A stretch of DNA of 64,000 nucleotides from Posidonia oceanica (Eukaryota > Streptophyta > Magnoliopsida > Alismatales > Posidoniaceae). Position numbers and translations under genes: made by a program. Below the pieces are notes generated by a model. The model ran no database searches and was not told the DNA's origin. It saw only the letters and a program-made list of their open reading frames with translations. Location: positions 46,820,001 to 46,884,000 of the forward strand of contig JAZBRS010000035.1 in NCBI GenBank assembly GCA_037176725.1. The letters run 5' to 3'. Shown one piece after another: positions 6,421-51,813 of the stretch (position 1 is its first letter; each line of letters begins with the position of its first letter).

Positions 6421-6576
6421 GAATAGTCTTATCTTCTTCTTTTCTTTCCCTTTTTAAGTGTTTTCGAGTTAAGTCTTCCTTCTCGGACACAGCCGCTAAT
6501 AGTGAACCTGATTCCGATCGGTGCACGTGAGCTTTGGCATCGTGCATGTACGATCCGAACACCGGGATTACTACAG

Positions 6577-15381: not shown

Positions 15382-15601
15382 TGTAGACACCCCATTCTGA
15401 GAACTCGAAAGTTGGTTGTTTTCTCCTACAGGCTCGTGTGGACTCTGGAAAGGCATCCCTTTTTTAACCCATTTTTTCTAGCCCAAACCAAACCCAAAAC
15501 CTTGCCCAAAGCCCTAGAAGCCTTTACCAAGTTATTTGCAACTTTTACAACACTTCTAGGCCCAAGCCCAAGCCCATTTGCAGCTTGTGCCACCTGAGTG
15601 T

Positions 15602-18477: not shown

Positions 18478-18789
18478 GTAAACCCTTCTGAACCATTGCA
18501 TATCATTTATCGCATTTGCACGCATTGTTTTCGCGTCTCATTTTCTGTGCATATAGATTAGGACTTCCCCCTTTGCCCATCTGCTCTGCTTCCTCTTTTC
18601 GCGTCTTCTTAGTGTTTTTGGGTTGAGTTCTCCCTCGGATTCACTACTGATTGCGGCCTTCTTCCCCCTTTTCCACGATCCAATTGCATAGCGAGCTTTG
18701 GGCAGCGTGCGAGACACATCGTGGGACGGTGTGGGGAACAGTCACAGAATAGTGGTGATCCCTCCACTTGCTTCCTTTCCCTTTTGCAG
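18478..18789 (+). other. Putative spliceosomal intron in LTR B
   Basis: CTCCAAG|GTAAAC at the start and TTTCCCTTTTGCAG|GT at the end correspond in position to the intron proposed at 5026-5351 of LTR A. The 3' LTR copy is 38276-38587. The stretch CTACCTGGACAACCTCGGTGG upstream is close to its counterpart in A. Confidence 0.42.
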
Positions 18790-18863
18790 GTCTTTACACC
18801 TGTATTGTGTGGTTCTTTCGATGTTTGTTCTTACACTCACATCGCTTGTCTCCCCTTTGCATC

Positions 18864-19170
18864 CGGGCTGGTAGCCCTAACTGCCCGTTTGACGCCCGTC
18901 ATGTCGTCTAATCTTCCCCTTTGCTTGTCATACCCCTGCATTGCATGGCTTTTTTCAAGGTTTTGCTTTTACTTTTGCATCGCTTGTTTTCTCGTCTGGA
19001 TTTGCTTTCGCCTTTGCTTATCGTACCCCTGCATTGCGTGGTTTTCCGATGTTTTGCTTTTGCAATTGCATTGCTTGTTTTTCACCCGGATTTGCCTTCC
19101 GCTTTGCTTGTCATACCCCTGCATCGCATGGCTTTTCCGATGTTTTATTTTCGCTTGTTTCTCGCGTTGT
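18864..19170 (+). repeat. GGGCTGGTAGCCC hairpin and 92-bp repeats in LTR B
   Basis: CGGGCTGGTAGCCC followed by AACTGCCCGTTTGACGCCCG at 18864-18901 matches words in the internal 3' region of the same element (33083, 34481, 34621) and in A (44106). It is followed by about two and a half units of a 90-93-bp repeat starting TTTGCTTGTCATACCCCTGC (18920, 19013, 19103), which takes the place of the 30-bp array in LTR A. Confidence 0.75.
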
Positions 19171-19460
19171 TTTGTGTGTTTGACGTTGTTTTCCCTTGCT
19201 TGCCGCTCGCATTGTCTGGCTTTACCGGTGTTTTGTTTTATCGCCTGCATTTGCATATAGGGCAGTGATGCTTACTGCCTGGAGTTCTCACGAACCAGGG
19301 TTCGCCCGGTTCGGAACACAGACAACGCTGCTGAGCACTTAGATTGCACGTTTAATTCCTTGCACACCTTCCAACCCTTAGAGCACATATTTGAGCATCC
19401 AATTAGGCATTTAGGGCATTTAGGCATTCGAAGCATGCATTCCCCCTCAAAAGCGAGCGT

Positions 19461-19532
19461 GAGCCTAGAAAGACCGCTTCTCGGGCGCGTCAGGGGTGCC
19501 TAACACCTTCCCCATGCGTAACAGGAGTCCTT
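19461..19532 (+). promoter_or_regulatory. Conserved LTR block of about 70 nt (copy in B)
   Basis: Same order of words as in A at 6161: AGAAAGACCG, TCGGGCG, GGGGTGCCTAACACC, GTAACAGGAGTCC. The 3' LTR copy lies at 39279-39350. Confidence 0.7.
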
Positions 19533-19690
19533 ACCCTTTCTCTGGCCTACAATGACCCTTTTGCCCTCGTCCTTGGTACAAGATATCCTCTTTGCATAGC
19601 ATTTGCATTGAACTGCATCTTCTTGTGTGGTTTTGCATGTTCTTCATGCATTTCCCCGATTTTCCTCGTCTCCCGATTGAATAGACTGGG

Positions 19691-19700
19691 TGGCGACTCC
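19691..19700 (+). other. PBS-like motif inside U5 of LTR B
   Basis: TGGCGACTCC, identical to the first ten bases of the B PBS, lies 105 nt before the LTR end. See the equivalent in A at 6411. Confidence 0.6.
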
Positions 19701-19808
19701 CTTTTCTTTATCTTTCCCTTCTTCGCGTCCCTCCATCCGTGAAAACCTCTCTCTTTCAGGTCCCCCCTCCGGTCCGAGCCTAAAAAGAGAAAAGGCGCAT
19801 TCACAGGC

Positions 19809-29752: not shown

Positions 29753-31468
29753 CCCGCCACTGCCTTGCACACCTTTTCCTTCATACTTCTTGCATTCCCT
29801 CTTTCCCATGCATTTTAGGCTTATTTATTTTTCAGCAAGAATTTATAAATGCATTATGTACATCGCTATCATAGGCCCGATGACGAAAATCGGAGATGCT
29901 TGCCTACTCTGGAAGGAGTACCCTCTACCTCACTTGACACTGCTTGGATGTCCTAACCAATGAGGGAGCCACCATCCAAGGAGGACAGACAAAATGTCTA
30001 AACTCTTCCAAGACCTACACCTCAAGAGGGAGAAAACAATCCTAGGGTGTGAGAGAGTGTGAGCAAGACCCACATGCCTTAGCCTAGCCCTCATAGAAAA
30101 CTAGAAGGCGAAGACAAGAGTTAACCCTGGAGATAGAGGTGTGTAGTACGACGTCGTCCCTCCAATTTGCCTTGGGGAGGATCCACATCCACGCCTACAA
30201 ATCCACAAGCTATGCAAAGTCGAGCCCCTTTTGCCTCAAAACCAGGCGCCCATTACCTTTGAGTTAGGGGTGGTGGAAGCCTACAAAAAAAAAAGAAAAA
30301 AAAAGAAGCAGCAAAAAAGAAAGGGAACAAGAAAGAAAAGACAAAAAAAGCAACAGTAAGCAAAAAAAAAAAAAAAAAAGAGAGGGGCAAAAGCAAAAGT
30401 CGACCCTAGAAACAAAGGCAAGTAGCGTGATTCTGCCCCTTTCCCTGTCTTAGAGAGGAACCAGATTTACGCCTGGGAAGTACATAGATCCTATGGGGCC
30501 TAACCACTCATCCCAGCCATCACCAGACACCCAACATTCCCCCTAGGCCAGGGATAGGGAAAATACTACACACCTATGTGGGAGCAAAAAAGACAAGAAA
30601 AAAATGAAAAGAGTAGGTGTAGCTCCTTGAGAGTTTGGCATGGAGCCCGTCCTCACTACACCACCATTCGAGCACCCATGATACCCTTTCCGAAGCACCA
30701 CCAACAGTTAGGAATCCGAGTAGAGTCTAGTGAGTCAGAGACTGCTCCTTCCTTTGCAGTAGGCATCAAGCACTTCGTATGCTGAAGGCGATAGATTTAG
30801 TATAGAGCATGCATGCATCTATTCACTATCAAATCATCCCCACCCCCTTTCCTCCCACTCTGCAAGGCTCGGCTCAGCACTGGGACAGTACTTCTGCCAA
30901 GGCAGGTTGACTGCCTCCAAGCCTCGGATCAACCAATCATTGCCAGTCCAGCAGCTCAGTGAAAGCATCAGTAACCAGAGACAAGCCGATCACTCCAGAG
31001 GCAGCAGGACAACCTTGGCACCCCCTGGGGCCCATTGGGCCGTCGGGTCTGCACAATCGGGCGCTACCCCCAATCCCTGTGTGATTTCGCTCTGGACGGA
31101 CGAAGTTTCTTTTCTACTTGTCCCCTTGCTCCGTACAGGACAAGGACAAGAGTGCCTCCTTTGTGACTTCGTTCCAGGCAAACGAAGCCCCCTTCTTTGT
31201 CTCCTCGCTCCGCATGGACGAGGACAAGAGTACCCTTTGTGCGGCTCCACCTTGTACAAGCGATGCCCCCTTTTTGCTTAGCTAAATGTGCTTGAATTCT
31301 GTGGTCTGATTGCTAGCTGTAGCGTTTGAACTGCTTTATCAGCTTTATATGCACATCTACTTCTCTGTCTGCCAGTGTTATGAGCCTGTACATGTTCTGG
31401 ATTGATGAAACGGCTCTGGCTATAGGTACTTGAAGATTTCGCACCAGCTATCTGCATCCTCGCCTGTC
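29753..31468 (+). other. Element B region between integrase and PMD-like ORF
   Basis: No gene seen. A block at 29875-29975 (CGATGACGAAAATCGG, GCTTGCCTACTCTGGAAGGAG, GAGGGAGCCACCA) is well conserved in A (41388-41483), as is a stretch around 30560-30780 (ACACACCTATGTGGGAG, AGTAGGTGTAG). A purine-rich, oligo-A tract covers 30280-30385, matching one in A. Two related units of about 75 bp at 31091-31245 contain GGACAAGAG words and can form hairpins. Just before the ORF, CTATAG|GTAC (31420-31428) resembles a splice acceptor, so a spliced mRNA for the PMD-like protein is possible. Confidence 0.6.
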
Positions 31469-32671
31469 ATGGGTTTCCCCACCTTGGTGACCCCAGCACA
31501 CTGCTCTGAGACTCTCCGAGGATGGATCGCCATGCTCACCAAAGCTGATCGTGAAAAGCTGAGCCTGTGGGGCATCCCACCCAGACTTCTGAAAGCTGCT
31601 GATGTGGAGGTCAACCGACATCTCTTGTATGCTGCTGCAAGGTTCTGGAAACCGGCACACCATGTTTTCTGCTTCGGAAGGATGGAGCTGACACTTACGT
31701 TGGAAGAGGTGCACCAAATCTGCGGTTTCTCCACGCTCATGGGACCTACTGTGTTCATGAGGCGTTCTAGCTATGTCACCATCCTGAGGCAACTTACGGG
31801 GCTCTCTGCACAAATCTGCAAGAAGAGATTGGTCTGCATCGACGGACCCGCACCTGCCCTCCGCTTGAACTATTTTGAAGAAGTCTCCAAGAAGCGCACT
31901 GAACTAGGAGATGAACTGTGGCTTCGTGGCTTTGTCACCTGCTTCTTGGGCAAGTTGATTTTCAGTCATGGCCGGATGACTGTAGCTATTGAAGTTGCGG
32001 AGATCGCCCTTGCTGTGGTAACCCACCAAATTGACCTGGCACCTATCGTCTTGGCTGAGACCTACTGCGGACTAGACCGCATTTCGCACCGCTGCCGCCA
32101 CTTTCACTGCTGCGGGGCCCTGGTACAAGTGTGGTTAGCTGGACACCTGGAGGTAGACATCCTGTGCCCCCAGAAGCATGCATTTGAGACATACTGCAGC
32201 AGCGGCCACACTAAGACTGTCAAAACTGTCCGCAAAGAGTACGAAAGGCTGGAACAACTGACTGATGATACAGTAACATGGCGTATCATTCCATCTGCGG
32301 TAGAGCCCTTCACTGTCTTCTTCGGCACCCGTGACATGCACTTGGTCGTCCTACCAGGGTTCACTGAAGGCGTGGAGTATCACCCCATCTGGGTTATGCG
32401 GCAATTCGGTCTCCGCCAAGGGGCATTTGTTGACAGCATTGCGCCAAAACTAGTCCGGCCCTATCCCTTCAGCACAATTGCACCCACAACGGAGTTTGCA
32501 GACCTCCTGCGCCATGGCATAAAGTCCACAGACATTGCAGCAGCAACGAGCTCAGGATGTACTCCTAAGTATCTAACTGAAGTGCAGGGGCTCTGGCCCA
32601 TTAACGAGATCTTGCCTGGTGCACCTCTCTTCCCTGACAATAGGAGGTCGAAGAAGGCCCGCACTGACTAG
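31469..32671 (+). CDS. PMD-like protein of element B (intact accessory ORF)
   Basis: An uninterrupted ORF of 400 codons in sense orientation downstream of integrase. I start at ATG 31469 (MGFPTLVTP) because A has the matching MGYPTLETP at its first ATG. N-terminal part: LRGWIAMLTKADREKLSLWG, LLKAADVEVNRHLL, ARFWKPAHHVFCFGRMEL and TLEEVHQICGFSTLMGP. C-terminal part: AWRIIPSA-type motif (TWRIIPSA here), VVLPGFTEGVEYHP and WVMRQFGLRQGAF, which resembles the RVxRQFG signature of plant mobile domain (PMD) proteins; the N-terminal half resembles the plant transposon-associated domain DUF7745. The tail is basic (RRSKKARTD). PMD proteins occur in transposons and as host genes (MAIL1, MAIN). The function in the element is unknown. 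It is the only long gene of B without a stop or frameshift. Confidence 0.82.
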   Translation: MGFPTLVTPAHCSETLRGWIAMLTKADREKLSLWGIPPRLLKAADVEVNRHLLYAAARFWKPAHHVFCFGRMELTLTLEEVHQICGFSTLMGPTVFMRRSSYVTILRQLTGLSAQICKKRLVCIDGPAPALRLNYFEEVSKKRTELGDELWLRGFVTCFLGKLIFSHGRMTVAIEVAEIALAVVTHQIDLAPIVLAETYCGLDRISHRCRHFHCCGALVQVWLAGHLEVDILCPQKHAFETYCSSGHTKTVKTVRKEYERLEQLTDDTVTWRIIPSAVEPFTVFFGTRDMHLVVLPGFTEGVEYHPIWVMRQFGLRQGAFVDSIAPKLVRPYPFSTIAPTTEFADLLRHGIKSTDIAAATSSGCTPKYLTEVQGLWPINEILPGAPLFPDNRRSKKARTD

Positions 32672-33314
32672 GGCCTCCACATCTGCTTATCCCTTTTTGA
32701 GTCTTGCTGTACTTTGTTCTGCCTGTCATAGGCATGTAATCAAGACTTTGTTAATGCAAGGGTGTTTTGTACCATGTGCTTGTATGTTTGGTTTGGCTTC
32801 CATAACATGGTGCATACATGGTCTTACAATCATATCTTCAGCATATCTCTTCAGCCCCTTTGAGTCATGAGAAGGGCACTATCAGAACCTACAAGCTCAG
32901 AAGCAACTATCAACACTCTCAGCGCCAAGGGAGCTACAAAAGTACCCTGCATTACACTTGGATGCTAGAATCTCTACAGACCAGCACCATCAACACGGGC
33001 AAAAGCTGTCGAGTGCTCCCGGCTGGGTATCCGCCAGGCTGATACCCCTAACTATCCGGCGATGAGTCCGTCAACTCACCCCCGGGCTGGTAGCCCTAAC
33101 TACTCGTTTGACAAGCACGTCAGCTTAGTCTATCACTTTTTCGATGCCACGGGCACTTCGGCTGTCCCTTGGTATCCTCCCTGATACCAGGGGCATCTTT
33201 TTCCACTGCCCTATGGTATCACATCTCTAGCTGCACCTAGGCTGGCGTGCCTAACTGTCGCGGGCCCATCCGTTTCTTTTCTTTGCTTTCGGATCTTGGT
33301 GCCCCTATACCCTT
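32672..33314 (+). other. Element B stretch between PMD-like ORF and hairpin array
   Basis: No gene. Contains ordered hairpin words that recur downstream: GGCTGATACCCCTAACTATC and GGCGATGAGTCCGTCAACTC (33031-33078), GGGCTGGTAGCCCTAACTAC (33085), and a stem-loop CCCTTGGTATC...GATACCAGGGG (33170-33197) that also occurs at 34572 and, in A, at 44205. Confidence 0.6.
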
Positions 33315-34335
33315 GTGGTCGGTAAGTCCGAAACTTATCACCTTTCCCTTGCGGTCGGTAAGTCCGAAACTTATCACATTTCCCCTTGCGGTCGGTAAGT
33401 CCAAAACTTATCACCTTTCCTCTTACGATCGGTAAGTCCAAAACTTATCACCTTTCCTCTTGCAGTCGGTAAGTCCGAAACTTATCACCTTTCTCCTGCA
33501 GTCGATAGGTCCGAAACTTATCACATTCCAATTCTCTTGCGGTCGATAAGTCTGAACTTATCATTCCCGTTTGCGGTCGATAAGTCCGAAACTTATCACA
33601 TTCCAATCCTTTGCGGTCGATAAGTCCGAAATTTATCAGCAACCCGTTTGCGGTCGATAAGTCCGAAACTTATCACATTTTAACCCTTTGCGGCCGATAG
33701 GTCCGAAACCTATCATCTATCAGCAACCTTTGCGGTCGATGGGTCCGAAACCTATCCTTTCCAGTCGATAAGTCCGAAACTTATCATCCATCCTTTGCGG
33801 TCGATGGGTCCGAAACCTATCCTTTCCGGTCAATAAGTCCGAAACTTATCATCCATCCTTTGCGGTCGATGGGTCCGAAACCTATCCTTTCTGGTCGATA
33901 AGTCCAAAACTTATCATCCATCCTTTGTGGTCGATGGGTCCGAAACCTATCCTTTCCAGTCGATAAGTCCGAAACTTATCATCCAACCTTTGCGGTCGAT
34001 GGGTCCAAAACCTATCACTCATCATATCACTCTTTGCGGTCGATGGGTCCGAAACCTATCATTTATCACATCATGCCACCTTTGCGGCCGATAAGTCTGA
34101 AACTTATTCGATCCTGGTTGATAAGCCTGAAAGCTTATCATACCAATCTATCACTTCCGGTTGATAAGACCGTAAACTATCACTTCCGACTGATAAGTCC
34201 GAAACTTATCCGGTTTCTGGTTGATAAGATTGCAAACTTATCACACCAATCCTTCCTTGCAGTTGATGGGTCCGAAACCTATCACTCATCATCAGCCCGT
34301 CCTTTGCGGTCGATGGGTCTGAAACCTATCATCTG
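33315..34335 (+). repeat. Array of about 28 short hairpins in element B
   Basis: Each unit is a stem of about 7 bp with a 5-nt loop, consensus GATAAGT-CCGAA-ACTTATC, separated by 10-20 nt of YTTTGCGGTC type spacer. I count about 28 units. Stems vary in pairs: GATAAGT/ACTTATC, GATAGGT or GATGGGT with ACCTATC (G-U allowed in RNA), and GATAAGC/GCTTATC at 34118. Between 33733 and 33996 GATGGGT and GATAAGT units alternate, giving a higher-order repeat of about 64 bp. Not a CRISPR: the repeats are palindromic, spacers are not unique and the host is a plant. Confidence 0.88.
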
Positions 34336-35205
34336 TCGTGCGTCCTCTTTTCTTGCTTGCTTTCTCAGTAGAAAAGATGCCCCCTTTTTTCTTTCGCACG
34401 ACAATTTTGGCCCTTCTATTCCGCGCCACTCTAATTGTCTGCTTGCTTCCTCGGGCGAGGGCAAGCTATCTTCCTTTCTCCGGGCTGGCAGCCCAAACTG
34501 CTCGGTTGACACCCGTCATAACTGTCCAACCCTTCTTTCGATGCCACGGGCGCTTCGGCTATCCCTTGATATCATCCCTGATACCAAGGGCATCTTATTT
34601 TGCCGCCCTCGGTATCTTCGCTGGGCTGGCAGCCCAAACTGCTCGGATGACACCCGTCACCCTGTCTGGCGTTCTTTTCCTTGCGCTGATAACCCAAACT
34701 ATCCGGTGATGAGTCCGTCAACTCCTTGGGCCGACAACCCGAACTGTCCAGCGATGAGTCCGTCAACTCCTTGGGTCGACAACTCGAACTGTCCGGCGAT
34801 GAGTCCGTCAACTCATTACCCATCGCATCAGCATTGCATATTAGATAATGGTGCCAGCATCTCATGCTAGGTAGCAGCATCGGCATCATGCACACAATCA
34901 TTGCATGCCTTCCCCGGCAGGCTCGCATCTCATGTCATTCCAGCACGCATCGCCTGCATCTCCCCCACAGAGCTCAACGCAGCAGGCACTAGCACAGGTT
35001 ATTTTAGCATCAGCATCACATCATCATTGCATGGCATTGCATTTGCATTTGCATCTGCATTTGCATTTGCATTTTGGCAACGAGTCATGATTTCTGGCAC
35101 ATCCGTCGGAATAATAACCCACGCCCACATACTTCACGCTCGCCGGTTTAGGTGGGGTGTCTTGTCAACCTTGAGCAGCGGCCTCGGTCCCCCTTGACCT
35201 CGCTC
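34336..35205 (+). other. Element B 3' untranslated region after the array
   Basis: No gene. CGGGCTGGCAGCCCAAACTG with TGACACCCGTCA recurs at 34481 and 34621. Three tandem units of about 46 bp at 34682-34815 share AACCCRAACTRTCC and GATGAGTCCGTCAACTC; the first pairs GATA with TATC and the next pairs GACA with TGTC, a compensatory change. 35040-35075 is a TTTGCA hexamer run. Text before the PPT (ACCTCGCTC) is the same as in A. Confidence 0.65.
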
Positions 35206-35218
35206 AGGGAGGGGCATC
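35206..35218 (+). other. Polypurine tract of element B
   Basis: AGGGAGGGG followed by CATC lies directly before the 3' LTR start TGTAGACACC. The identical sequence precedes the 3' LTR of A at 45960. It primes plus-strand DNA synthesis. Confidence 0.85.
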
Positions 35219-38200
35219 TGTAGACACCCCATTTTGAGAACCTGAAAGTTGGTTGTTTTCTCCTGCAGGCTCGTGTGGACTCTAGAATGGCATCCCTTTT
35301 CTAACCCATTTTTTCTAGCCCAAACCAAACCCAAAACCTTGCCCAAAGCCCTAGAAGCCTTTACCAAGTTATTTGCAACTTTTACAACACTTCTAGGCCC
35401 AAGCCCAAGCCCATTTGCAGCTTGTGCCACCTGAGTGTGTTGGACACTGGAACAGGCAGCGTCCAACGTTGGACGCCATCTGGTCTGGCGTCCAACGGCT
35501 CGAGTGCAGCAGCGGCTGCTCCGCCCCCTCTGGCTCACCTCCCGTTCATTCCACTGCCCGTACACCACTTACTAGCCATCCCCTCACCACTCCATGCCAC
35601 CCACTAGCCGCCAAGGCCGCGTGATAGCCTACCACCAGCCAATTTCGTGCTCCCGCCCGTTTTCTGCTCTCCTCCGGAGTCACCACTTTGCCAGCCTATC
35701 CCTGCCACCCCGACGACTTCGGCGACCATCCGCACCTCCAACACTAACTACCAGACATCCCTCGAAGACTTCCCACTCTTGCTTTGGCCTACCATGCCTG
35801 CCACTGCCTGCCAAAATCCCTGCCATCGTTGAACTTAAGCCTCCGAACCCAACAAAATAGCATCCTTCATGCCGTTGTAGCATTCACCACACCGAGCAGA
35901 GAAGAGAATTCCCACATCCGAGAGCAAGAAGGCACTCCCCTCTCCGTCCTCGACACTTCGCGACCTCCTCCGACGCTCCAGGCTACCCAGACGCCTTCGC
36001 CGAAGTTGCTGTTGCAGACACACTCGCAACGTCGGTGAACGAGGTGGAGCCACTGTTCCGGGCCGCCAAACGGTAAGCACTACATCCCTTTTAGTCTTGC
36101 ATGTCGAGTGTTATGCTCCCATGCATTTTTACATTTTTTTGAACTCTTTCGGTCGAGATTCGAGGCCAAAAGGAAGTTCAGTGTGTTGGACGCACCAGCT
36201 GGTGCGTCCAATGTTGGATGCTTGCTGTAGCAGCGTCCAACACTCTGCTTAGCTTTGTCCTTGTTTGAATGCTTTCCATGCTTTATCTTTGCTTGCTTCT
36301 TTGTAAATATATGCCATATGTTTCCCTTAGTGCTCCTTGATGTTATACCATGCTTATTAGTTTATCCCATGCTTATTAGAAGCCTTTTTGCATGCTTAAT
36401 GATCCATCTGTCCCCTGCCTGTGTTGGACGCTAGCGTGAGCTGCGTCCAACGTTGGACGCTGGTTCACCTAGCGTCCAACACCTCTGCTTGCTTTACTTT
36501 GCTGCCATGCCTCCATCATGCATATTTTGAGTATTATTTTGTGATCCATGCCTACTTAGAGATGCCTGGCCCCTATGGCAACCATGCTTAGGTTTGCTAG
36601 GATTTTTCTAAGTTGTTTACTTCTTTTGCAAAGATTAAAGCTTTCTTCTCTCACGCATGTTCTTCCTTCCTTGCTTTCCTTAGCTCAAATGATTGCTATG
36701 CATGCTCCTGTTAGTTGCTTACATGCCTTTAAAGTGTTTGCATGCATGTAGCTGGGGTCAGAGCTGAGCTCCCCCTTTAGAACAGGTGAGTCTGCATGTT
36801 TGGATCATTGGACGCCACAGCCTTCAGTGTCCAACGTTGGACGCTGCTGGCTCTAGCGTCCAACGTCCTGACCTCCCCATCTTTGGTTCAAAGCTTGCAT
36901 GTCTTCCTGATCTGGTTCTTTGCATGTCTCTTGTGTTCTTATGCATGCTTAGCCTCTCTAGCAACTGTTCTTTAACTTCTTTGAATTATTCTGGCTATTT
37001 TATGCATGTTTTTTGTGTGCTGTGCCCCCTAGAGTGTTCTACGCTACTGGTGCTGGCGTCCAACATTGGACACCGGCCTAGCTCGCATCCAACACCCTGG
37101 TTGTGTCTCTGACCTGGCACAGACCCCAAGTAAGGTCTGATTGCATCTTTTATGCTCCCCTTGTTTGCTTGTTTGTCCTGTGCACATCCAGTAGCCCAAA
37201 TGCATGCTCCCACCCTTTTTATTTTATTTTATTTTTTCTTTTAGTTTGTTTTTTTGTTTGCTTCCTCTTCTCTCTGTCTTTTGGCCTGTGTTAGATGTCT
37301 GCCACTATGGCGTCTAACGTTGGACGCCATGCCTACCGACGTCCAACAACCTGTTTGTTCTAACCCTTAATCCTGGCCTGCCCCTTTGCTCTAATCCCCT
37401 CCTAATCCTCTGTTAAGTTAGTCTTGCATCTCATGCACCTCTTGCACTGCATTTCTGCATCTGCATCGCATCCATATAGCCTGCATGCATTCATTTTTCT
37501 CAAAAGCATGGCTTGGTTGTTGGACGGCCAGATCTCAGCGTCCAACATTGGATGCTGTCAATCTGAGCGTCCAACACCCTCTGCCCCCTTTTTCTTCTTT
37601 TCATTTTTTCAAGAATCACCTTGATCTTGCTTCTGATTTCTGGGCCTTGTGTTTTTATTTCCCAGCATGCTCTATCTGTCCTAGGATTTTTACATTGCAT
37701 CAAATCCCTATTTTCCAAGTTTGCATCGCATGTTTTCTGCATTTTGGTTTTTGCCTGTGTAGGACACGAGCTATTCCAGCGTCCAACATTGGACGCTGCT
37801 GCTAGTCGCGTCCAACACTTGCTGTAAGCTGCATCTCATTTTAAATGCCGAATCCGTTTTGATTGCCACCCCTTTGCATTTCGCTGGTCCCGATACTTGC
37901 CTACAGCACCCTTGCATGTTGTCGGGACCCTGTTTTGATTTTGCACCTCGCCCTGCACTTTTTTCCTCTTTGCACCTAGGTCCTTCTCTTTGCATTCTTG
38001 CATGCATTGCACCCCTATCATTGCACCTAGTATCTTAGGACACTTTTGAGCACTCTTAGCTCCCATGCATATGGGAGGCCCCGTCCTGCACACCCCTAGG
38101 ACCTCTTTGCACTTAGATCCATTATTCTCCCCCATTCTTGGCCCTCCTACCTTGAAGCCTACATATCTTCCGATCCGACCGTCAGATCTTCACAACCAAG

Positions 38201-39619
38201 CTACCTGGACAACCCCGGTGGAGCGCACTTCAACGCAGACCAAGCACTTCCCAGATTAGGCTTCAAATCTCCAAGGTAAATCCTTCTGAACCATTACATA
38301 TCATTTATCGCATTTGCATGCATTGTTTTCGCGTCTCATTTTCCACGCATATAGATTTGGACCTCCCCCTTTGCCCATCTACTCTGCTTCCTCTTTTCGC
38401 GTCTTCTTAGTGTTTTTGGATTCAGTTCTCCCTCAGATTCACTACTGATTGCGGCCTTCTTCCCCCTTTTCCATGATCCAATTGCAGAGCGAGCTTTGGG
38501 CAGCGTGCGAGACACATCGTGGGACGGTGTGGGAAACAGTCACAGAATAGTGGTGATCCCTCCACTTGCTTCCTTTCCCCTTTGCAGGTCTTTACACCTG
38601 TATTGTGTGGTGCTTCCGATGTTTGTTCTTACACTCACATCGCTTGTCTCCCCTTTGCATCCGGGCTGGTAGCCCTAACTGCCCGTTTGACGCCCGTCAT
38701 GTCGTCTAATCTTCCCCTTTGCTTGTCATACCCCTGCATTGCATGGCTTTTTTCAAGGTTTTGCTTTTACTTTTGCATCGCTTGTTTTCTCGTCTGGATT
38801 TGCTTTCGCCTTTGCTTATCGTACCCCTGCATTGCGTGGTTTTCCGATGTTTTGCTTTTGCAATTGCATTGCTTGTTTTTCACCCAGATTTGCCTTCCGC
38901 TTTGCTTGTCATACCCCTGCATCGCATGGCTTTTCCGATGTTTTATTTTCGCTTGTTTCTCGCGTTGTTTTGTGTGTTTGACGTTGTTTTCCCTTGCTTG
39001 CCGCTCGCATTGTTTGGCTTTACCGGTGTTTTGTTTTATCGCCTGCATTTGCATATAGGGCAGTGATGCTTACTGCCTGGAGTTCTCATGAACCAGGGTT
39101 CGCCCGAACCAGGGTTCGCCCGGTTCGGAACACAGACAGCGCTGCTGAGCACTTAGATTGCACGTTTAATTCCTTGCACACCTTCCAACCCTTAGAGCAC
39201 ACATTTGAGCATCCAATTAGGCATTCAGGGCATTTAGGCATTCGAAGCATGCATTCCCCCTCAAAAGCGAGCGTGAGCCTAGAAAGACCGCTTCTCGGGC
39301 GCGTCGGGGGTGCCTAACACCTTCCCCGCATGTAACAGGAGTCCTTACCCTTTCTTTGGCCCGTAATGACCCTTTTGCCCTCGTCCTTGGTACGAGATAT
39401 TCTCTTTGCATAGCATTTGCATTGAACTGCATCTTCTTGTGTGGTTTTGCATGTTCTTCATGCATTTCCCCGGTTTTCCTCGTCTCCCGATTGAATAGAC
39501 TAGGTGGCGACTCCCTTTTCTTTATCTTTCCCCTCTTCGCGTCTCTCCATCCGTGAAAACCTCTCTCTTTCAGGTCCCCCCTCCAGTCCGAGCCTAAAAA
39601 GAGAAAAGGCGCATTCACA
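35219..39619 (+). repeat. Element B 3' LTR (4401 bp)
   Basis: Matches 15382-19805 throughout. Differences include one hairpin fewer in the first cluster (35439-35497 against 15602-15698), C/T changes in hairpin arms (for example GTTGGATGC at 36213) and a short duplication GAACCAGGGTTCGCCC at 39090-39120. Other modules: 36185, 36423, 36808, 37036, 37290, 37519, 37759. Intron candidate 38276-38587; conserved block 39279-39350; U5 PBS-like motif near 39505. Confidence 0.93.
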
Positions 39620-42623: not shown

Positions 42624-43823
42624 ATGGGTTACCCCACTCTCGAGACCCCAGTACACTATTCTGAGACTCTACGGGGTTGGATAGGCAAGCTCACCAAGGA
42701 TGACTGTGAAAAACTACGCCTCTGGGGCATACCAACTAAACTGCTGAAGGCGGCTGATGTCGAAGTAAGCCGACACCTCCTGTGCACTGCCGTAAGATTC
42801 TGGAAGCCGGCGCATCATGTCTTCTGCTTTGGAAGGATAGAACTAACACCTACACTGGAAGAGGTGCGCCGAATCTGTGGCTTCTCCCGGCTAATGGGAC
42901 CGCCCATCTTCATGAGGCGTGACAAGTACATAGCGGTCCTTTGCAAGCTATCTGGGCTCTCCACTGACCGGTGCCAGCAATTAATCTGCACTAGCGACCT
43001 TACGCCCATGCTGCGCCTGACTTACTTTGATGAGATTGTGGACAAGCATGCTGAGCTCGGAGATGATCTTTGGCTTTGGGGATTTGTCACCCGATTTCTG
43101 GGCGAGCTGATATTCACTTATGGCCGGATGATAGTTGCGATAGAAATTGCTGAAATCGCACTAGTTGTGGTGACTAGGCAGATAGACCTGGCACCAGTTG
43201 TCTTGGCTAAAACTTATCGTAGGCTGGACCGCATCTCTCACCGCTGCCACCACTTCCACGGCTGCGGAGTGCTAGTACAGATCTGGCTGGCTGCACATCT
43301 AGAACTGGACATACTACGGCCTTGGGGCAATGTTATCGAGACATATTGCAATAGCGGCCATGCTAGGACAATCAAAAGCGTCCTAAAAGAATACAAGAAA
43401 CTATCAGAGCTGACGGATGACACCGTAGCATGGCGCATCATTCCATCTGCGGCTGAGCCTTTCACTATCTTCTTTGAAACCCGTGATGCGCGACTTGTTG
43501 TGCTGCCAGGATTCACCGGAGGTGTGGAGTATCATCCTGTCCGGGTCATGCGGCAGTTCGGCCTCCAGCAGGGCGCCTTCATAGACAGCACCGCCCCCAG
43601 GCTCCTCCAGGCATATCCTTTGGGTTCAACATCTGTTACAACTGAACTAGCTGATCTAATGCAGCATGGAGTGCGGTCTACTGACATAGCATCCGCGCAA
43701 GGCTCGGGTTGCACTCCTGAATATCTAACAGAGGTGCAAGCGCTCTAGCCCATCAGTGAGATACCTCCTGGCGCTCCCATGTTCCCCGACTCCAGAAAGT
43801 CAAAGAAAGCTCGGATCGACTAG
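42624..43823 (+). pseudogene. PMD-like protein of element A (one late TAG)
   Basis: Homologue of the B ORF with the same start and length; most positions agree by eye. ATG at 42624 (MGYPTLETPVHYSETLRGW), then KLRLWGIPTKLLKAADVEV, AVRFWKPAHHVFCFGRIEL, LEEVRRICGFSRLMGP, TVAWRIIPSAAEPF and VRVMRQFGLQQGAF. The only defect is TAG at 43746 in place of TGG (B: LWPINE), after which SEIPPGAPMF and KSKKARID lead to the original stop at 43821. The truncated product would lack about 26 residues including the basic tail. Compared with gag-pol of A, which has more than ten stops, this gene is strikingly preserved. Confidence 0.8.
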
Positions 43824-44316
43824 AACATCTGTGTAGCTGTTTGCCTGTGTAGTTCTTATACTGTATCTTTTGGCCTGCCACAGGCATGTAATCAAGTTCT
43901 ATCAATACAAAGGCGTTCTGAGCCACCTATTTGCATTTCAAATCTACTTCAAGTGCATGCATGATCGCATCAATCATATTGCAGGGCCCTTAGCCAGACT
44001 TGCTGCCAAACACCGCAGGAAAGTCCTCCTCAATCAATCCAAGTGCTGACCCGTGCCATCCAAACAAGCAAAGCCGCCGAGCACCATCGTCCGGATCTTC
44101 TTCCAGGGGCTGGTATCCCAAACTACTCGTCTGGCAAACGCGTCAGTTTTGTCTTCACCCTTTGTTTTTTATGCCAAGGATGCGCTGGCCAACCCCTGGC
44201 ATCATCCTGATACCAGGGGCATCTTTTTGTTCGCCCCTTGGTATCATTCCCCCTCTCTTTCCCCCATGATATTCCTATATATCATAGGATGATCTGCTCT
44301 TGCAAAACCTATTCCT
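43824..44316 (+). other. Element A stretch between PMD-like ORF and hairpin array
   Basis: No gene. GGGGCTGGTATCCCAAACTA with a TGGC...GTCA tail at 44105-44146 and the stem-loop CCCCTGGCATCATCCTGATA...CCAGGGG at 44205-44231 have counterparts in B. Confidence 0.6.
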
Positions 44317-44576
44317 TTGCCGGCCGATAAGTCCGATATCTTATCATCCATTCTTTCGCCGGTCGATAAGTCCAATATCTTATCACTCATTCTTTTGCCG
44401 GCCGATAAGTCCGATATCTTATCACCTATTCATTTGCCAGCCGATAAGTCCGATATCTTATCACCCATTCATTTGCCGGCCGATAAGTTCGATATCTTAT
44501 CACTCATTCTTTTGCTGGCCGATAAGTCCGATATCTTATCATCCTTTCTTTTACCAACCGATAAGTCTGATATCTT

Positions 44577-44613
<37 letters not shown>

Positions 44614-44614
44614 C

Positions 44615-44648
<34 letters not shown>

Positions 44649-45640
44649 CCCCTTTCCGATTGATAGGATCATAAACTATCGCTTCCGATTGATAGGACCG
44701 TAAACTATCGTTCTTTGGCTGATATCCAAAACTATCACCCGCAGTTGTGTTATACGGCTGATATCCAGTAACTATCCCTTGCAATTGCACGTTCCGGTTG
44801 ATAGGACCGTAAACTATCGTTCTCTGGCTGATGATCCGAAACTCATCTTTGGCTGATACCCAAAACTATCACCTGCAATTGCGTTATATGGCTGATATCC
44901 AGTAACTATCACTCATGATTGTGCTTCCGGTTGATAGGACCATAAACTATCGTTCTTTGGCTGATATCCAAAACTATCACCTGTAGTTGTGTTATACGAC
45001 TGATATCCAGTAACTATCCCTCGTAATTGCACCTTCCGGTTGATAGGACCGTAAACTATCGTTCTCTGGCTGATGATCCGAAACTCATATTTGGTTGATA
45101 CCCAAAACTATCACCTGCAATTGCGTTATACGGCTGATATCCAGTAACTATCACTCATGATTGCGCTTCCGGTTGATAGGACCGTAAACTATCGCTCTCC
45201 GGCTGATATTTGAAACTATCCTACGCAATCATGTTTTCCGGCTAATATCCAGTAACTATCACTCGCAAACGCCCTTTCCGGTTGATAGGACCATAAACTA
45301 TCGCTCTCTGGCTGATATCCAAAACTATCACGGGTATTTGCATTTTCTGGCTGATATCCAGTAACTATCACTCATGATTGTGCTTCCGGTTGATAGGACC
45401 GTAAACTATCGCTTCCGGTTGATAGGACTATAAACTATCACTTCCGGTTGATAGGACCGTAAACTATCGCTCTCCGACTGATATTCGAAACTATCCTGCA
45501 CAATCATGTTTTCCGGCTGATATCTAGTAACTATCACTCACAACTGCACCTTCCAGTTGATAGGACCGTAAACTATCGCTTCCGGTTGATAGGACCGTAA
45601 ACTATCACCCCCCGGCCGATAAGTTCGATATCTTATCACC
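44317..45640 (+). repeat. Array of about 36 short hairpins in element A
   Basis: The first seven units (44325-44577, spacing about 39 bp) have GATAAG-TCCGATAT-CTTATC. An ATCA tetranucleotide run covers 44578-44648. Then about 29 units use three stem-loop types: GATAGGACCGTAAACTATC, GATATCCAAAACTATC and GATATCCAGTAACTATC, plus GATGATCCGAAACTCATC, where GATGA pairs with TCATC. From 44690 to 45176 the order of types repeats every 242-244 bp. The unit sequence differs from the array of B, but position, stem length and loop style agree. Confidence 0.86.
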
Positions 45641-45972: not shown

Positions 45973-48900
45973 AGTTGACACCCCATTTTGACAGGTTGAT
46001 TTAGTGGAATCCTTCTAGTGACTTCTGAACCTTAGAAAAAACCCAAAACCACATCCTTCTTTCCAAATCAAACCCAAAACTAAACCTAGAATCACATCCA
46101 TTTCCTAAACCCAAAAACCACCCAAAAACCATAGGAAAACCCATCCTTCCTAACCTAGAAAACCCTCCAAAAAATCCTTAGAATTTCAAACCAAAACCAC
46201 TCCCAAAAACCCTAGAAAACCTAGGTAAAACCCCCTTTTTCTAGACCCAAAAACCCTTCCAAAAACTTGCCAAAATCCCACTTCAAACCCTAGGTTAAAC
46301 ACAAGAAACCCAACATCACACACTCACCCAATCCCACTTCATTTCCAAGCCTTTATCCTCCCCATCTTTCCAAATCATCCTTTTCTCTCTCCAAAATTAT
46401 TCTTTTCTCACTCCTCTCTATCCTCCTTCTTATTCTCCTTCATTTCCTTCCCATCTCTCTCCTTTTCTTGCTTGGCAGTGGGCCCACCTTGTGCATCTTT
46501 CCTTCCTGTATTTTATCTGTATTTTTATTTTATTTTTATCTTATCTCTTGTTTTTCTAATATTTAATTTCTTTCCTCCCCTCCCTTTCTTCTTTCTTTCT
46601 TTCTTTTCTTCTTCTTCTCCTTTTCCTTTCTTCCACTAAACCTTTAAAACTCTAATTAAAAAAGGAAAACAAAAGAGAAACAAATCAAAACCTTAAAAAG
46701 AAATAATTAAAAGAAAACTTAGACAAACAATTAAAAGAAAAATCCAACTAAAAGCAACTAAAAAACTAAGAATGCAATCTAAAAAATATAAAAAAAACAA
46801 GATGAAAATGCCATTAAAAACAAACAAAACAAAAACATAATCAAAACAAACAAAAAGCAAAAACCCTTTTCAAAATAACAAAAAACAAATCCTAGGAAAA
46901 AAGAAACAATTAAAAACCCTAGGATAAGTAATTAAAAAACAATTGACAAATCTAGGGAAACAATTAAAACTTAAAACAATTTAAAAGACTTAATTAAAAA
47001 GGAAAAAAGAGGAAAAATTTAACAAGAAAAACTTAACTTAAAAACAATTAAAAAACTTAACAAACATTTAAAACAAACTTAAAAAAATAATTTAAAGAAA
47101 ACTTAAGAAACATCATAAAAACTAAAATCAAAGCTAAAACCCCTCTCAACACTAATTAACTAATTAAAAAACAATCCTTTAAAAATCTTATTAAGAATCC
47201 TAACCTAAAAAACAACCACCCTAAAATATCTCCAAATCTTTTTTATTTTTATTCCAATCTTTTTTCCTTTCTCTTCTTTCATTCTCCTTCCCTTTCTTTC
47301 TTATTTTTCATTTCCATTTCTTTTGCCGGCCCGGCCCACTCCTGCACCTCCTCCCCTCCTTCCCTTCTTTTCTTTTTTCTTTCTTTCTTTCCTTTCCCAC
47401 GGCCCAGCCCGCTCCACCTGCCTACTACCTCCTCCTTCCCTCCTTTCCTTCTTCTTCCTTCTTCTTCTGCTTCTTCTTCTCTCCCGCAAACCAGAACAGC
47501 ATTCCCTCTCGGATTTAAAATCCAAATTCTCCCCCTCCATCACCTCCAGCAACAGCACCCTCTCCTCTCTCACCCTCTCTCAGCCTTGGCTACATTTTCC
47601 GCTGTAGCATTTACTCGGGCTGTCGTGCGTCGTCTCGCCGGCCAGCACCTCCAATCAGCTGCAGTCTCCCCACCTGGTGGAATTTGAAATCCACCAGCAC
47701 CCATGCCTCCCAATAAAACCAGCCCTTCAGCATTCCTTCCACCACCTTTTGCCATCTGAGTGCAGCAACCAGAGAGAGCGTGAGAGCCCCAGAATTCCCT
47801 TCCTCCTCCTTTGCAAAAATTCAGCATCTTCCTCCTCCTTCCCTCTGAAATTCAGCCCTCCATAGACCTTCAAACCCCAGCAAATCCATCCCCAAACTTC
47901 ACCTGACATCCAGCAATTCATCTCCACCCATTCCACTCCCTGAATCAACCTAGAAACACCCAAAACTCCTCCATTCTCCTCCACAGAACTCATCACCATC
48001 CATCCCAGAATTTCCAACACCACAGACTCCAAAACTCTCCCCAGATCTTCCCAGCAACTCACCCCCAACTTCCCAGACCCCTCGGCCTTCAACCCAGCAA
48101 CTCACCACAGCTCCGACAACCCACCACAAACACCTATACCATCTCCTGCTCGAAAATCACCCAGCCAGCAAACTCCCTCCACAGGCTTCCACTACCCAAT
48201 TCAAGCACTTCCACACCTTCACCAGACACCCAGCTACCCACCGGAGCCCTCCACTCAGCCCAAGGAGCAACACTTCACTCCCCCCACCTCCGGCAGACTC
48301 CAGTACACCCAAAAAATCCCATTTCCTCCGCCGGCCAGCAAACTCACGTCCGAGCATCCAGAAAGCACCGGAGCGTCACTAGGAGTCGGTCCTGACCCTC
48401 GTGTGCTGCCCAAGACGCCTCCAGCTGCCGGACCATCACCGCCGTCGCTTGGAAAAACCACTGACATCGGGGGGACAACTCAGCCGTTGAAACAGGTATC
48501 TCTTCGCCTGCGTAGCTTAGTTTTCTTCTTCTTCTGCTTCCCGACCCATTAGAATAGGGTTCTGGTCTGCGTCGCACGAAGTCGTCACCGCCGAGGACCT
48601 GTCTTCTCCGGCGAGCTTCTGCGCGCAGATCACCGCTCCAGCCCGCTCGTCCCTCGCCGTCGATCCTCCGAGCATCGTGGAGCTTCCAGCAATGCCGTCC
48701 TGCCCTCCGTTTCCACCGTCGACACTTCCTGCCTCTGGTCTGCTTCCAGAGCTTCTGCAGAGCTTCGCTGCCTCCTCCGGTCTACTCCAGCGCCCGTCAT
48801 GGCCCGACGACATGCCTCCAGCCTCCGTGCACCTCCGGCGCAGCTCCCCAGCACATCAGCACCGTCCAAGTGTGCCTCCTTCTCCAACACCGGCCTCTGG

Positions 48901-51813
48901 TTTCTTAGCTACAGTGTTTCGATTATTTTATTTCCGTTCATTTCGTTTGCGTTTTATTTTTCCTTAACTTATGAATTTTTTCCATGAAATTGCATTTTCA
49001 CCTTGCTGTTTTGTTTATTTGCTTTCCAATCCTGCCACAGTTTAAGATTCATTTAAATCTGAATAAAAACCATATGAAATTGCATGAAAAATATGTAGTT
49101 TCACTTATTTGCATGTTAGTCCTACTGTTGTATAAAAACTTATGTTTTCTTTTAGTTTAAGCCCAGCTCTTTATTTTTATTACTTGTTAGTCCTCTGCAG
49201 TTACAGCTTTTTTAGTTTTATTTATTTCCAACCCAGTTATTTATTTTATTTGCATGTTGATCCTGCTCTAGTTCAAACACTTTTCTGTTTTTTTATTTTC
49301 CAGTCCAGCAACTATTTTATTTTGCAACTGAGTCCTATGATTGTTAAATGTCATTTAAATATCTGCTTTTACCTTATTACATTGCTTTTTAGTCCTTCTT
49401 TTTATTTTCTTTGCAATTCAATCCTCTATTTAGTTGTAAAATTCATTTAATTTCTTATTTTACCTTATTGCATTGCACTTTTATCCTGCTTTATTTTATT
49501 TTTGCACTTTAGTCCTCTGTTTACATTCGCAGCATCATTTAATTGCAATTTTTCCTTATAAAATTGCATTTTAGCCCCAACATCATTTAATTGCATATTT
49601 TACCATATAAAATTGCATTTTAGCCCCTACATGTTTTCAAATTACATTTTAGTCCACTATTTGTATTCACAGATCATTTAATTGCATATTTTACCATATA
49701 AAATTGCATTTTAGCCCCTGTATATTTTTAAATTGCATTTCAGTCCTCTACAGGTTTAGAAAAATCATTTAATTGCATCTTTACCATATTAAATTGCATT
49801 TCAGACCCTGCATTTTATTTTAATTGCATCTAGACTCTCAATTTTTCAAAAACATTGCATATAGGCCCCTAATTTTTCAAAATCATTGCATATAGGCCCT
49901 TAACTTTTCAAAAGCATTGCATTTAGGTCCTTAACATTTCAAAATCATCACACTTAGGTCCTTTCTTGCATTTTTGCATGCATTGCACCCATGCATCACT
50001 GCACTTAGCATTTTTGCACACTTTTAAGCACTTTTAGCTCCCATGTATGTGGGAGGACCTATTCGGCACACCCCTAGGACCCCCTTTACACTTAGATCCC
50101 TTCTTCTCCCCTAGCCCTTGCGCCTTCTACCTTGAAGCCTGGATATCTCCCAATCGGGCCGTCGGATCTTCTCAACCAAGTTACCTGGACCTCCCTGGTG
50201 GAGCGCACTTCAATGCTGACCAAGTTCACCTCAGATCAGGCTTCAGATCTCCAAGGTAAGTCCTTCTGAACTCCTGCACAGCATCTCTTTTGCATATCAT
50301 TTGCATTGCATGCATTGTTTTCGCACCGCGTTTTCATGCATGTACATTAGGACTCCCTCTTCTTGTCTATACACTCTACTCCCTCTTTTTGCGTACTCTT
50401 AGTGTTTTTGGGTTGAGTTTCCCCTGTATTTACTACTAATTGCGACCTTCTCTCCCTTTTCCACGATCCGATTGCACCGCGAGCTTTTGGCAGCGTGCAA
50501 GACATATCGTGGGACACTTTGGTGGGAAACAGTCACAGAATAGTGGTGATTCCTCCACTTGCTTTCTTTCCCCCTTGTAGGTCTTTACACCTGCAATGTG
50601 TGGTCCTTAAGCAGTGTTTGTTCTCACAGTTGCACCGCTTGCCTCTCCTTACTTCTCTTGCTCTCCTCTTTGCATGTTTTACATCTGCATTGCATGGCTT
50701 TTACGATGTTTTGTTTCACCTGTTTCTTGCACTGTTTTGCATGCCCGCTTTCTTTTTTGGCACCGTTTTGCATGCCCGCCTTGTTTCTTACACCGTTTTG
50801 CGTGTCGACTTTGTTTCTTGCACCGTTTTGCATGCCGACTTTGTTTCTTACACCGTTTTGCATGCCTGCTTTGTTTCTTGCACCATTTTGCGTGCCTGCT
50901 TTGTTTCTTGCACCATTTAGCGTGCTGGCTTTGTTTCTTGCACCGTTTTGCATGTCTGCTTTGTTTCTTGCACCGTTTCACGTGCTTGCTTTGTTTCTTG
51001 CACCGTTTTGCGTGCTGATTTTGTTTCTTGTACCGTTTTGCATGCCTGCTTTGTTTCTTGCACCATTTTGCGTGCCGACTTTTGTTTCTTGCACCATTTT
51101 ACGTGTTTGCTGTTGTTTTCTCTTGCATGTCACCTGCATTGCCTGGTTTTACTGCTGTTTTGTTTTATCGCCTGTATTTGCATATAGGGCAGTGATGCTT
51201 ACTGCTTGGAGTTCTCACGAACCAGGGTTCACCCGGTTCAGAACACAGACAGCGTTGCTAAGCGCTTAGATAGCACGTTTAATTCCTTGCACGCATTCCC
51301 TTCACTTAGAGCACACCTATGAGCATCTAATTAGGCATTCATGGCACTTAGGCATTCAAAATCTGCATTTCCCTGCATATGCGAGCGTAAGCCTAGAAAG
51401 ACCGATTCTCGGGCGTATCGGGGGTGCCTAACACCTTCCCCGCACGTAACAGGAGTCCTTGCACTTTCTCTTGGTCCGCAATGACCATATTGCCCTTATC
51501 TTAGGCATGAGTCATATCATTTGCATTCATTTGCATTTCTTTTCTTTTGCATTGCATCGTATTGCATCCTTTGCTTGGTTTTGTGTGTTTATTCACGCAT
51601 TTCCCCGACTTTCCTTGTTTCCCGACTTAATAGACACAGTGGCGACTCTGAATTGTCTTATCTTCTTCTTTTCTTTCCTTTTTTTCCCTTTTTAAGTGTT
51701 TTCGAGTTAAGTCTTCCTTCTCGGACACAACCGCTAATAGTGAATGTGATTCCGATCGATGCACGCGAGCTTTGGCATCGTGCATGTACAATCCGAACAC
51801 CGGGATTACTACA
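45973..51813 (+). repeat. Element A 3' LTR (5841 bp)
   Basis: Matches 692-6575. In the first 80 bases six differences are visible, mostly transitions. One repeat unit is missing near 49578. Intron candidate 50256-50580, 30-bp array 50715-51112, conserved block 51386-51458, U5 PBS-like motif 51650-51659. Ends GGATTACTACA followed by the AATGG duplication. Confidence 0.92.

What the first reader, a model, noticed from the sequence alone, without database searches (positions are those of the whole stretch)
33315..34335. Element B 3' region: about 28 tandem hairpins with compensatory stem changes
Units pair as GATAAGT/ACTTATC, GATAGGT or GATGGGT with ACCTATC, and GATAAGC/GCTTATC. The loop is nearly fixed (CCGAA). 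Paired variation with a constant loop in noncoding DNA between the last ORF and the PPT is a classic sign of selection on RNA structure. It would lie in the 3' UTR of genomic RNA. Possible roles: packaging, stability, dimerisation, a protein-binding platform (perhaps for Gag or the PMD-like protein), or protection from silencing. All of these are inference.
Basis: partly seen in the sequence, partly recalled or inferred. Interest (0 to 1): 0.88.

Follow-up and report, generated by a model that had tools for sequence, protein, structure and literature searches.

The report
Hairpin array in giant plant retrotransposons
Two giant jumping genes in a plant genome carry, in the untranslated tail of their RNA, dozens of small repeats whose two halves change together so that they can still fold back on each other, which suggests that the tail works as a structured RNA, although what it does is not known.

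Summary
In detail: 33315-34335 holds 28 short hairpin units between the plant-mobile-domain ORF and the 3' LTR of an Ogre-like Ty3/gypsy element (B, 15382-39619). The covariation claim holds only in part inside B, where one stem pair carries nearly all of it, spread by duplication. It holds well across the wider unit family (host element A, 44326-45637; flanking units; copies genome-wide), where the GATA/TATC core also occurs as GGTA/TACT, GGCA/TGCT, GACA/TGTC and GATG/CATC. Single changes at three core pairs kept or broke pairing 14 to 7 on internal branches of the unit tree, 5 to 36 on terminal ones. One degenerate pattern matches 326,662 places in the 2.96-Gb genome (reversed control 5). 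The loop CCG can also pair with a CGG just upstream, so units may be H-type pseudoknots; this second helix is supported between unit types but not by the branch test, and an abundant class (11,100 places) breaks it in the simple register. Tandem repeats in Ogre/Tat 3' regions are known; my searches listed no report of units folded and selected for pairing. Function is inferred: most likely a multivalent RNA site for an element protein. No transcript was examined.

The parts
33321..34330 (+). Main array of element B: 28 hairpin units, S2 stem mostly 7 bp, loop mostly CCGAA; S1 (upstream CGG with loop CCG) can form in 19 of 28
33041..33104 (+). Leading units of B (GATA/TATC, TGAGT/ACTCA, GGTA/TACT with GGG/CCC)
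   Evidence: same units seen in other B copies, (plus-strand copies)
34487..34817 (+). Trailing units of B (GGCA/TGCT, GATA/TATC, GACA/TGTC, GATGAGT/ACTCATT)
44326..45637 (+). Array of element A: GATAAG/CTTATC, GATAG/CTATC, GATA/TATC and GATGA/TCATC units, several types in turn
44112..44127 (+). Leading unit of A (GGTA/TACT)
31430..32671 (+). Plant-mobile-domain ORF of B, upstream of the array
   Evidence: PF10536 E 8.1e-18
42624..43748 (+). Plant-mobile-domain ORF of A, upstream of the array
   Evidence: PF10536 E 9.4e-18
35205..35218 (+). Purine-rich tract CAGGGAGGGGCATC before the 3' LTR of B (the same letters stand before the 3' LTR of A)
15382..19805 (+). 5' LTR of element B
35219..39619 (+). 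3' LTR of element B, 96.0% identical to the 5' LTR; flanking GCGAC/GCGAT
692..6575 (+). 5' LTR of element A
45973..51813 (+). 3' LTR of element A, 93.6% identical to the 5' LTR; flanking AATGG/AATGG

Best explanation
The 3' untranslated region of these Ogre-like elements carries an array of about 20-40 copies of one small RNA fold. SHOWN by sequence comparison: each unit has a hairpin core (S2, 4-7 bp, GATA/TATC type) whose pairing was mostly kept while its bases changed in lineages that went on replicating, and is lost on terminal branches. SUPPORTED, not shown: a second helix (S1) between three bases just upstream (CGG, GGG, TGG, AGG) and three bases of the loop (CCG, CCC, CCA, CCT), which would make the unit an H-type pseudoknot with a short pyrimidine first loop and an A-rich last loop; where S2 has only 4 bp it is not stable alone, so S1 may be needed. 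INFERRED: the array acts in cis on the element's RNA as a multivalent docking site for an RNA-binding protein, most likely one of the element's own (Gag, the G-patch segment or the plant-mobile-domain protein), helping the full-length RNA to be packaged or protected; tandem duplication, probably during reverse transcription, renews and varies the copies. The confidence given is for the whole statement with the docking role; for selection on S2 pairing I would say 0.8, for the pseudoknot 0.45.
For: Observation and chance control. S2 core changes on both sides across unit types: in 75 distinct units from the first 100 listed genome places the two variable inner S2 pairs rank 1st and 2nd of 72 column pairs, A-T 41/G-C 31/G.T 2/A.C 1 and T-A 46/C-G 22/T.G 5/C.A 2, each 0 of 5000 permutations; 94.9% of cells paired against 88.3% shuffled (0 of 500) and 29.5-50.9% in slid registers. 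Tree nulls on 548 distinct units: S2 95.9% paired against 65.1% and 69.7% (0 of 300 each), S1 84.7% against 59.7% and 56.3% (0 of 300 each). Branch test at S2 positions 2-4: kept/broke 14/7 internal, 5/36 terminal, p 2.2e-5. Strand hint: A to G at A-T pairs (leaves G.U) 178, T to C (leaves A.C) 5 in B-type units, though 155 of the 178 are one variant. S1 genome counts in one context: A-T 78,866, G-C 10,000, T-A 6,255, G.T 476 against A.C 1,314 and T.Y 202. S2-only energy is positive in 5 of 12 units tested. Array present after the PMD ORF in 27 of 30 B-type and 29 of 30 A-type copies, the window's own copies included; of 63 sources 62 hold units, median 27, maximum 38 per source, in stretches of mostly 1.5 kb. 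B and A code for candidate RNA-binding partners.
Against: Inside B-type units only 1 of 10 pairs covaries. In the all-pairs test no pair reaches E below 1; two S2 pairs come 3rd and 5th of 378, most other high pairs are not complementary. S2 position 1 shows no branch contrast (9/10 against 13/17) and S1 none (48/47 against 53/71, p 0.28). R.A, unpaired in the simple register, counts 11,100, more than T-A; the first five places are at C1:35146-35814, which read TGGG..CCA and can pair as TGG/CCA when shifted by one base, a reading made after the count. S1 is absent or unformed in 9 of 28 B units and in the long-hairpin units of L071. Nested folding energies show no excess in 44800-45600 of the A array (four 200-nt tiles, z from 0.5 to 0.0), and the antisense strand folds about as well as the sense strand in B. 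Neither RNA nor protein binding was observed.
Confidence: 0.4

Rival explanations
1. Ordinary hypervariable tandem repeats of an Ogre 3' region: a few ancestral units were duplicated during replication, and the paired look is inherited without function.
For: Tandem repeats in this place are common in Tat elements and of unknown function (PMC7004042 Discussion; PMC11963269 passages; PMC6317226 passages). Inside B-type units the covariation is one pair. No pair passes the all-pairs test.
Against: Several core pairs change on both sides between unit types; internal against terminal branch contrast; pairing above tree nulls.
Confidence: 0.2
2. A 3' UTR element for RNA stability or translation, like the tandem pseudoknots of tobamovirus RNAs or exonuclease-resistant RNAs: it works on the RNA directly or through host factors, not through an element protein.
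For: Place in the 3' UTR, repetition of one fold, possible H-type pseudoknot. The tobamovirus upstream pseudoknot domain is said to act in replication and translation (PMC4683447, start of abstract in the listing).
Against: No Rfam family matches either region at E up to 1. Copy number is far above the few pseudoknots of such domains (recalled). No functional data.
Confidence: 0.2
3. A mutational effect: template switching of reverse transcriptase inside imperfect inverted repeats copies one arm onto the other, so both arms change in one event without selection.
For: Would act on short inverted repeats in an RNA copied by reverse transcriptase and gives double changes (reasoning, no call). Double-sided events on single branches were inferred.
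Against: It should leave perfect pairs, but G.U is kept as a type feature: position 1 G.U in 32 of 75, and 155 of 645 B-type units at one pair. Two overlapping pairings (S1 and S2) are harder to explain.
Confidence: 0.12
4. A DNA-level function: arrays of palindromic protein-binding sites or cruciforms, for instance GATAAG..CTTATC as sites of a plant transcription factor.
For: GATAAG resembles plant GATA-factor or I-box sites (recalled); B units and some A units hold it on both strands.
Against: Many units lose that motif (GGCA/TGCT, GACA/TGTC, GGTA/TACT) but keep pairing. G.U as a type feature does not fit a DNA palindrome.
Confidence: 0.08

Closest known systems
Hypervariable tandem repeats in the 3' region of Ogre/Tat/Retand LTR retrotransposons (Macas 2009, cited in other papers, not read; PMC7004042 Discussion; PMC11963269 passages; PMC6317226 passages)
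   Same: Place between the last ORF and the 3' LTR, unit lengths of tens of bases, family-specific sequence, number varying between copies, function called unknown
   Different: Here the units share a stem core whose arms change together between types. 'Hairpin' and 'secondary structure' do not occur in the held main texts of PMC11963269 and PMC7004042, nor 'hairpin' in PMC6317226
Upstream pseudoknot domain of tobamoviruses (PMC4683447, start of abstract in the listing; details recalled)
   Same: Works like: consecutive small pseudoknots in the 3' UTR of a plant RNA, if S1 is real
   Different: Not a member: no Rfam match, retrotransposon not RNA virus, tens of copies instead of a few (recalled), other sequence
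Hammerhead ribozymes, as in plant retrozymes (recalled)
   Same: Some unit letters (GATGAGTCCGT, CTGATGA..CGAAAC) recall hammerhead core letters (recalled)
   Different: No hammerhead match in Rfam at E up to 1 in either region
Exonuclease-resistant RNAs of viruses (listing only)
   Same: Pseudoknots in 3' UTRs, sometimes in tandem
   Different: No Rfam match; ring fold and resistance not testable here

Membership tests
Ogre group (Tat lineage, Ty3/gypsy) | Gag, RT-RNase H and integrase of Ty3/gypsy order | tested here: met
   B: Retrotrans_gag, RVT_1 with RNase H, Integrase_H2C2 and rve in this order
Ogre group (Tat lineage, Ty3/gypsy) | Additional RNase H between RNase H and integrase (PMC6317226 passages) | tested here: met
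   A: RVT_3 at 15136-15597, after RT-RNase H (13756-14916) and, by similarity to B, before integrase; the ORF runs into the inserted B. Not tested in B
Ogre group (Tat lineage, Ty3/gypsy) | Large size with long LTRs; PMD in an extra ORF is common (57% of Ogre elements) | tested here: met
   B 24.2 kb, LTRs about 4.4 kb; PMD ORFs in A and B
Ogre group (Tat lineage, Ty3/gypsy) | Primer binding site for tRNA-Arg (PMC9289625 passages) | tested here: inconclusive
   TGGCGACTCCACTGGGGA three bases after the 5' LTR of B (TGGCGACTCCACTAGGGA in A); match to tRNA-Arg is recalled, no tRNA was compared
Ogre group (Tat lineage, Ty3/gypsy) | Place in an RT phylogeny; spliced intron between Gag-Pro and Pol | not tested
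   No tree or transcript was made
Tandem hairpin array selected for pairing | More hairpins than chance | tested here: met
   26 against mean 1.42, maximum 6 in 100 shuffles
Tandem hairpin array selected for pairing | Arms change together beyond relatedness | tested here: met
   S2: tree nulls 0 of 300 twice, branch contrast p 2.2e-5; but the all-pairs test is not passed
H-type RNA pseudoknot | Order S1a-L1-S2a-S1b-L3-S2b with short L1 | tested here: met
   Order possible with S1 of 3 bp and L1 of 2 pyrimidines in 19 of 28 B units; in 16 of 18 type examples (listing)
H-type RNA pseudoknot | S1 kept by selection together with S2 | tested here: inconclusive
   Above tree nulls and in most genome counts, but no branch contrast and 11,100 R.A places
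H-type RNA pseudoknot | Both helices formed at once in the RNA | not testable with these tools
   Needs probing or a solved structure
Known RNA family of Rfam 15 (hammerhead, viral pseudoknots and others) | Covariance-model match | tested here: not met
   0 matches at E up to 1 in 32700-35300 and 43700-46000, both strands

The most novel reading that the evidence does not exclude
Each unit is an H-type RNA pseudoknot, and the element's genomic RNA ends in a string of some 20-40 of them. The two helices trade length between unit types (S1 3 bp with S2 7 bp, up to S1 6 bp with S2 4 bp) while the knot is kept, and the family has spread to hundreds of thousands of units in one genome. The 'hypervariable' Ogre 3' repeats would then be, at least here, a fast-evolving but structurally constrained RNA device that repeat surveys miss because the sequence is free while the fold is fixed.
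Probability: 0.4. Interest if true: 0.82.

Novelty: new variant of a known kind. Interest (0 to 1): 0.62.

Why it matters
[quoted passage not shown] If the repeats are folded RNA units kept by selection, the question becomes testable: fold, partner protein and effect on the element's RNA can be measured. It would also give very large natural sets of one small RNA fold, and a reason why such arrays persist although their sequence changes quickly.

Tried and rejected
Searching IMG/VR with unit patterns and with an RT fragment found nothing useful: 0 hits for two exact units, no relative for the RT piece, and 10 contigs with one match each for a degenerate pattern, with no array in the stretches fetched; I take these as chance. 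A protein search with the PMD ORF gave 15 proteins from short ENA contigs without names or context. A third PMD group (about 508-aa frames) was checked in 5 downstream stretches, L065-L069; the hairpin listing shows no unit array there (tandem-repeat tables only for L065 and L067). Rfam gave nothing. Nested folding energies do not show most of the A array. A script run failed (after its counts).

My own error: loci L005-L064 from the genome search are not turned to the match. therefore read minus-strand copies the wrong way round. From this I had concluded for a while (note) that an A subfamily lacks the array; that is withdrawn. repeat the work with orientation and replace those numbers. Of the earlier calls I cite only for plus-strand copies and the window, and for its listing of the type examples, which do not depend on orientation. 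One search also had a faulty pattern and printed nothing.

Rows dropped before counts: L002-L004 (overlap L001), L005 and L035 (the window itself) and L065-L069 (no array) were left out of the 63 sources. The all-pairs test used at most 30 units per type (351 of 766 distinct extended units). One search used the 100 places listed of 326,662, all on contig C1. Unit types were picked by eye from observed units, and units were collected with up to 6 mismatches to them, which favours units close to a type. The S1 helix was noticed in this data and then tested partly on the same data; the genome counts were chosen after seeing the C1 listing.

Full report
What was checked. It holds nested giant Ty3/gypsy elements. 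Element A has LTRs 692-6575 and 45973-51813 (93.6% identical, AATGG on both sides). Element B, inserted in it, has LTRs 15382-19805 and 35219-39619 (96.0% identical, GCGAC/GCGAT). A related internal region, C, lies on the minus strand at 62303-53233. B codes for Gag, a G-patch segment, RT-RNase H, integrase and, last, a plant-mobile-domain (PMD) protein; A has G-patch and PMD ORFs, RT-RNase H and an additional RNase H. This fits the Ogre group of the Tat lineage as described in PMC6317226 (passages); no tree was made.

The observation. In B, 28 units lie between the PMD ORF and the 3' LTR. Hairpins of at least 7 bp number 26, against 1.42 on average and 6 at most in 100 shuffles. Element A has its own array in the same place (44326-45637) with mostly shorter stems and other loops, and B has related units before and after the main array.

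Is it more than duplication? Inside the B type, little more. In 645 B-type units from 31 sources one pair (A-T 333, G-C 299, G.T 7, A.C 4) carries the covariation; the other nine pairs of S1 and S2 lie within 2 units of the value expected from independent columns. It does not apply to the unit family. A degenerate pattern that fixes only purine or pyrimidine in the core matches 326,662 places in the genome (reversed control 5). In the 100 places listed (75 distinct, 25 clusters, all on one contig) the two variable inner stem pairs rank first and second of 72 column pairs: A-T 41, G-C 31, G.T 2, A.C 1 and T-A 46, C-G 22, T.G 5, C.A 2 (structure count). GATAAGTNNNNNACTTATC alone occurs 117,263 times, the reversed pattern once. 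These counts are copies, not independent events.

Relatedness. On 548 distinct units from 62 of 63 sources, S2 pairing (95.9%) exceeds two nulls that evolve the columns independently on the unit tree (65.1% and 69.7%, 0 of 300 each); S1 pairing (84.7%) also exceeds them (59.7% and 56.3%, 0 of 300 each). The clearest sign of selection is where changes fall: single changes at S2 positions 2-4 kept or broke the pair 14 to 7 on internal branches and 5 to 36 on terminal ones (p 2.2e-5). Internal branches stand for lineages that went on replicating; terminal ones include decay after insertion. S2 position 1 shows no contrast (9/10 against 13/17), and S1 none (48/47 against 53/71, p 0.28). In the stricter all-pairs test no pair reaches E below 1; two S2 pairs come 3rd and 5th of 378, and most other high pairs are not complementary, as expected when unit types differ at many sites. 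Trees of units of about 25 bases are poorly resolved, so event counts are rough.

Strand. At three A-T pairs of B-type units A to G, which leaves G.U in the sense RNA, is seen 178 times and T to C, which leaves A.C, 5 times (sums). Of the 178, 155 share one pair and may be one inherited change, so this is a hint. G.U at stem position 1 is common (32 of 75), but the pattern required G there.

A second helix. Three bases just upstream of the stem and three bases of the loop are complementary in most unit types: CGG/CCG, TGG/CCA, GGG/CCC, AGG/CCT (listing, 77). This gives the order of an H-type pseudoknot with a short pyrimidine first loop and an A-rich last loop. In B itself S1 can form in 19 of 28 units. 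In one fixed context the genome holds A-T 78,866, G-C 10,000, T-A 6,255 and G.T 476 against A.C 1,314 and T.Y 202. Against this stands R.A with 11,100. Its first five places, C1:35146-35814, read TGGG..CCA and can pair as TGG/CCA when shifted by one base, which I noticed only after the count; how many of the 11,100 are of this kind is not known. Over all these cells 95,597 of 108,213 are paired. In the C1 sample 24 of 75 units are unpaired at this position; of the 14 A.C cases 10 have C before the A, as CpG decay of a former G-C pair would give. S2 alone has positive energy in 5 of 12 units tested, which suggests that S1 helps, but S1 may instead form an alternative hairpin; in 7 of those 12 S1-type or other nested folds are the lowest-energy fold or S2 is unstable. 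I hold the pseudoknot at 0.45.

Conservation in place. The array pattern was found downstream of the PMD ORF in 27 of 30 B-type and 29 of 30 A-type copies (the window's own included; these were the best-scoring copies, not a random sample). The letters of the other four (L014, L020, L027, L060) show other sequence in that place, in L014 after two units. Another B relative, L071, has in addition units with long hairpins and no S1, and L070, an A relative, has GACA/TGTC.

How it most likely works. From the anatomy the array lies in the sense 3' UTR of the genomic RNA. Repetition of one fold with free sequence and variable number fits a docking site that works by number rather than by one exact copy. 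The element encodes candidate partners: Gag, a G-patch segment (a domain hypothesised to bind RNA, PMC9289625 passages) and PMD. A packaging or protection role is my choice among inferred roles; nothing here tests it. Translation or stability effects, as for tobamovirus pseudoknots (PMC4683447, start of abstract in a listing), are the main functional rival.

What is known. Tandem repeats in this place are well known in Ogre, Retand and other Tat elements, with function called unknown (PMC7004042 Discussion read; PMC11963269 abstract and passages; PMC6317226 passages). My searches for hairpin, stem-loop, compensatory or pseudoknot together with such elements listed no paper that, by title and start of abstract, describes folded units; only 15 of 58, 12 of 12 and 12 of 16 papers were listed. 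The library lacks most subscription papers, including Macas 2009, which I did not read.

Noticed in passing
G000 contig C62, about 365902-1864070, minus strand: Many hits to the PMD family of about 508-aa frames, several of them 25.4-25.5 kb apart (for example 1410268, 1435725, 1461150 and 1750083 to 1851961), as if a 25-kb unit with a PMD gene were tandemly repeated.
   Followed up: no
window 5492-5876 and 50721-51100: The LTRs of A hold a 30-bp tandem array, about 12 copies, with short inverted halves in many units (TTGCACCGTTTTGCGTGCC).
   Followed up: partly
L071 (reverse complement), C1:3016500-3017500: A B relative with a further unit kind: long hairpins such as TGATAAGG/CCTTATCA and CGATAAG/CTTATCG with an outer GGTTTGG/CCAGACC helix, without S1.
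   Followed up: partly
window 33166-33193 and about 44190-44225: An 11-bp hairpin (CCCTTGGTATC/GATACCAGGGG) before the B array has a near counterpart before the A array.
   Followed up: no
window 44577-44648: An (ATCA)18 microsatellite lies inside the A array.
   Followed up: no
window 53233-62303, minus strand: Internal region of a third related element (C); I recognised no array or LTR of its own in the window.
   Followed up: partly
L014, L020, L027, L060: Copies in which the tail is interrupted by other sequence, in L014 inside the array by letters like an LTR start.
   Followed up: no
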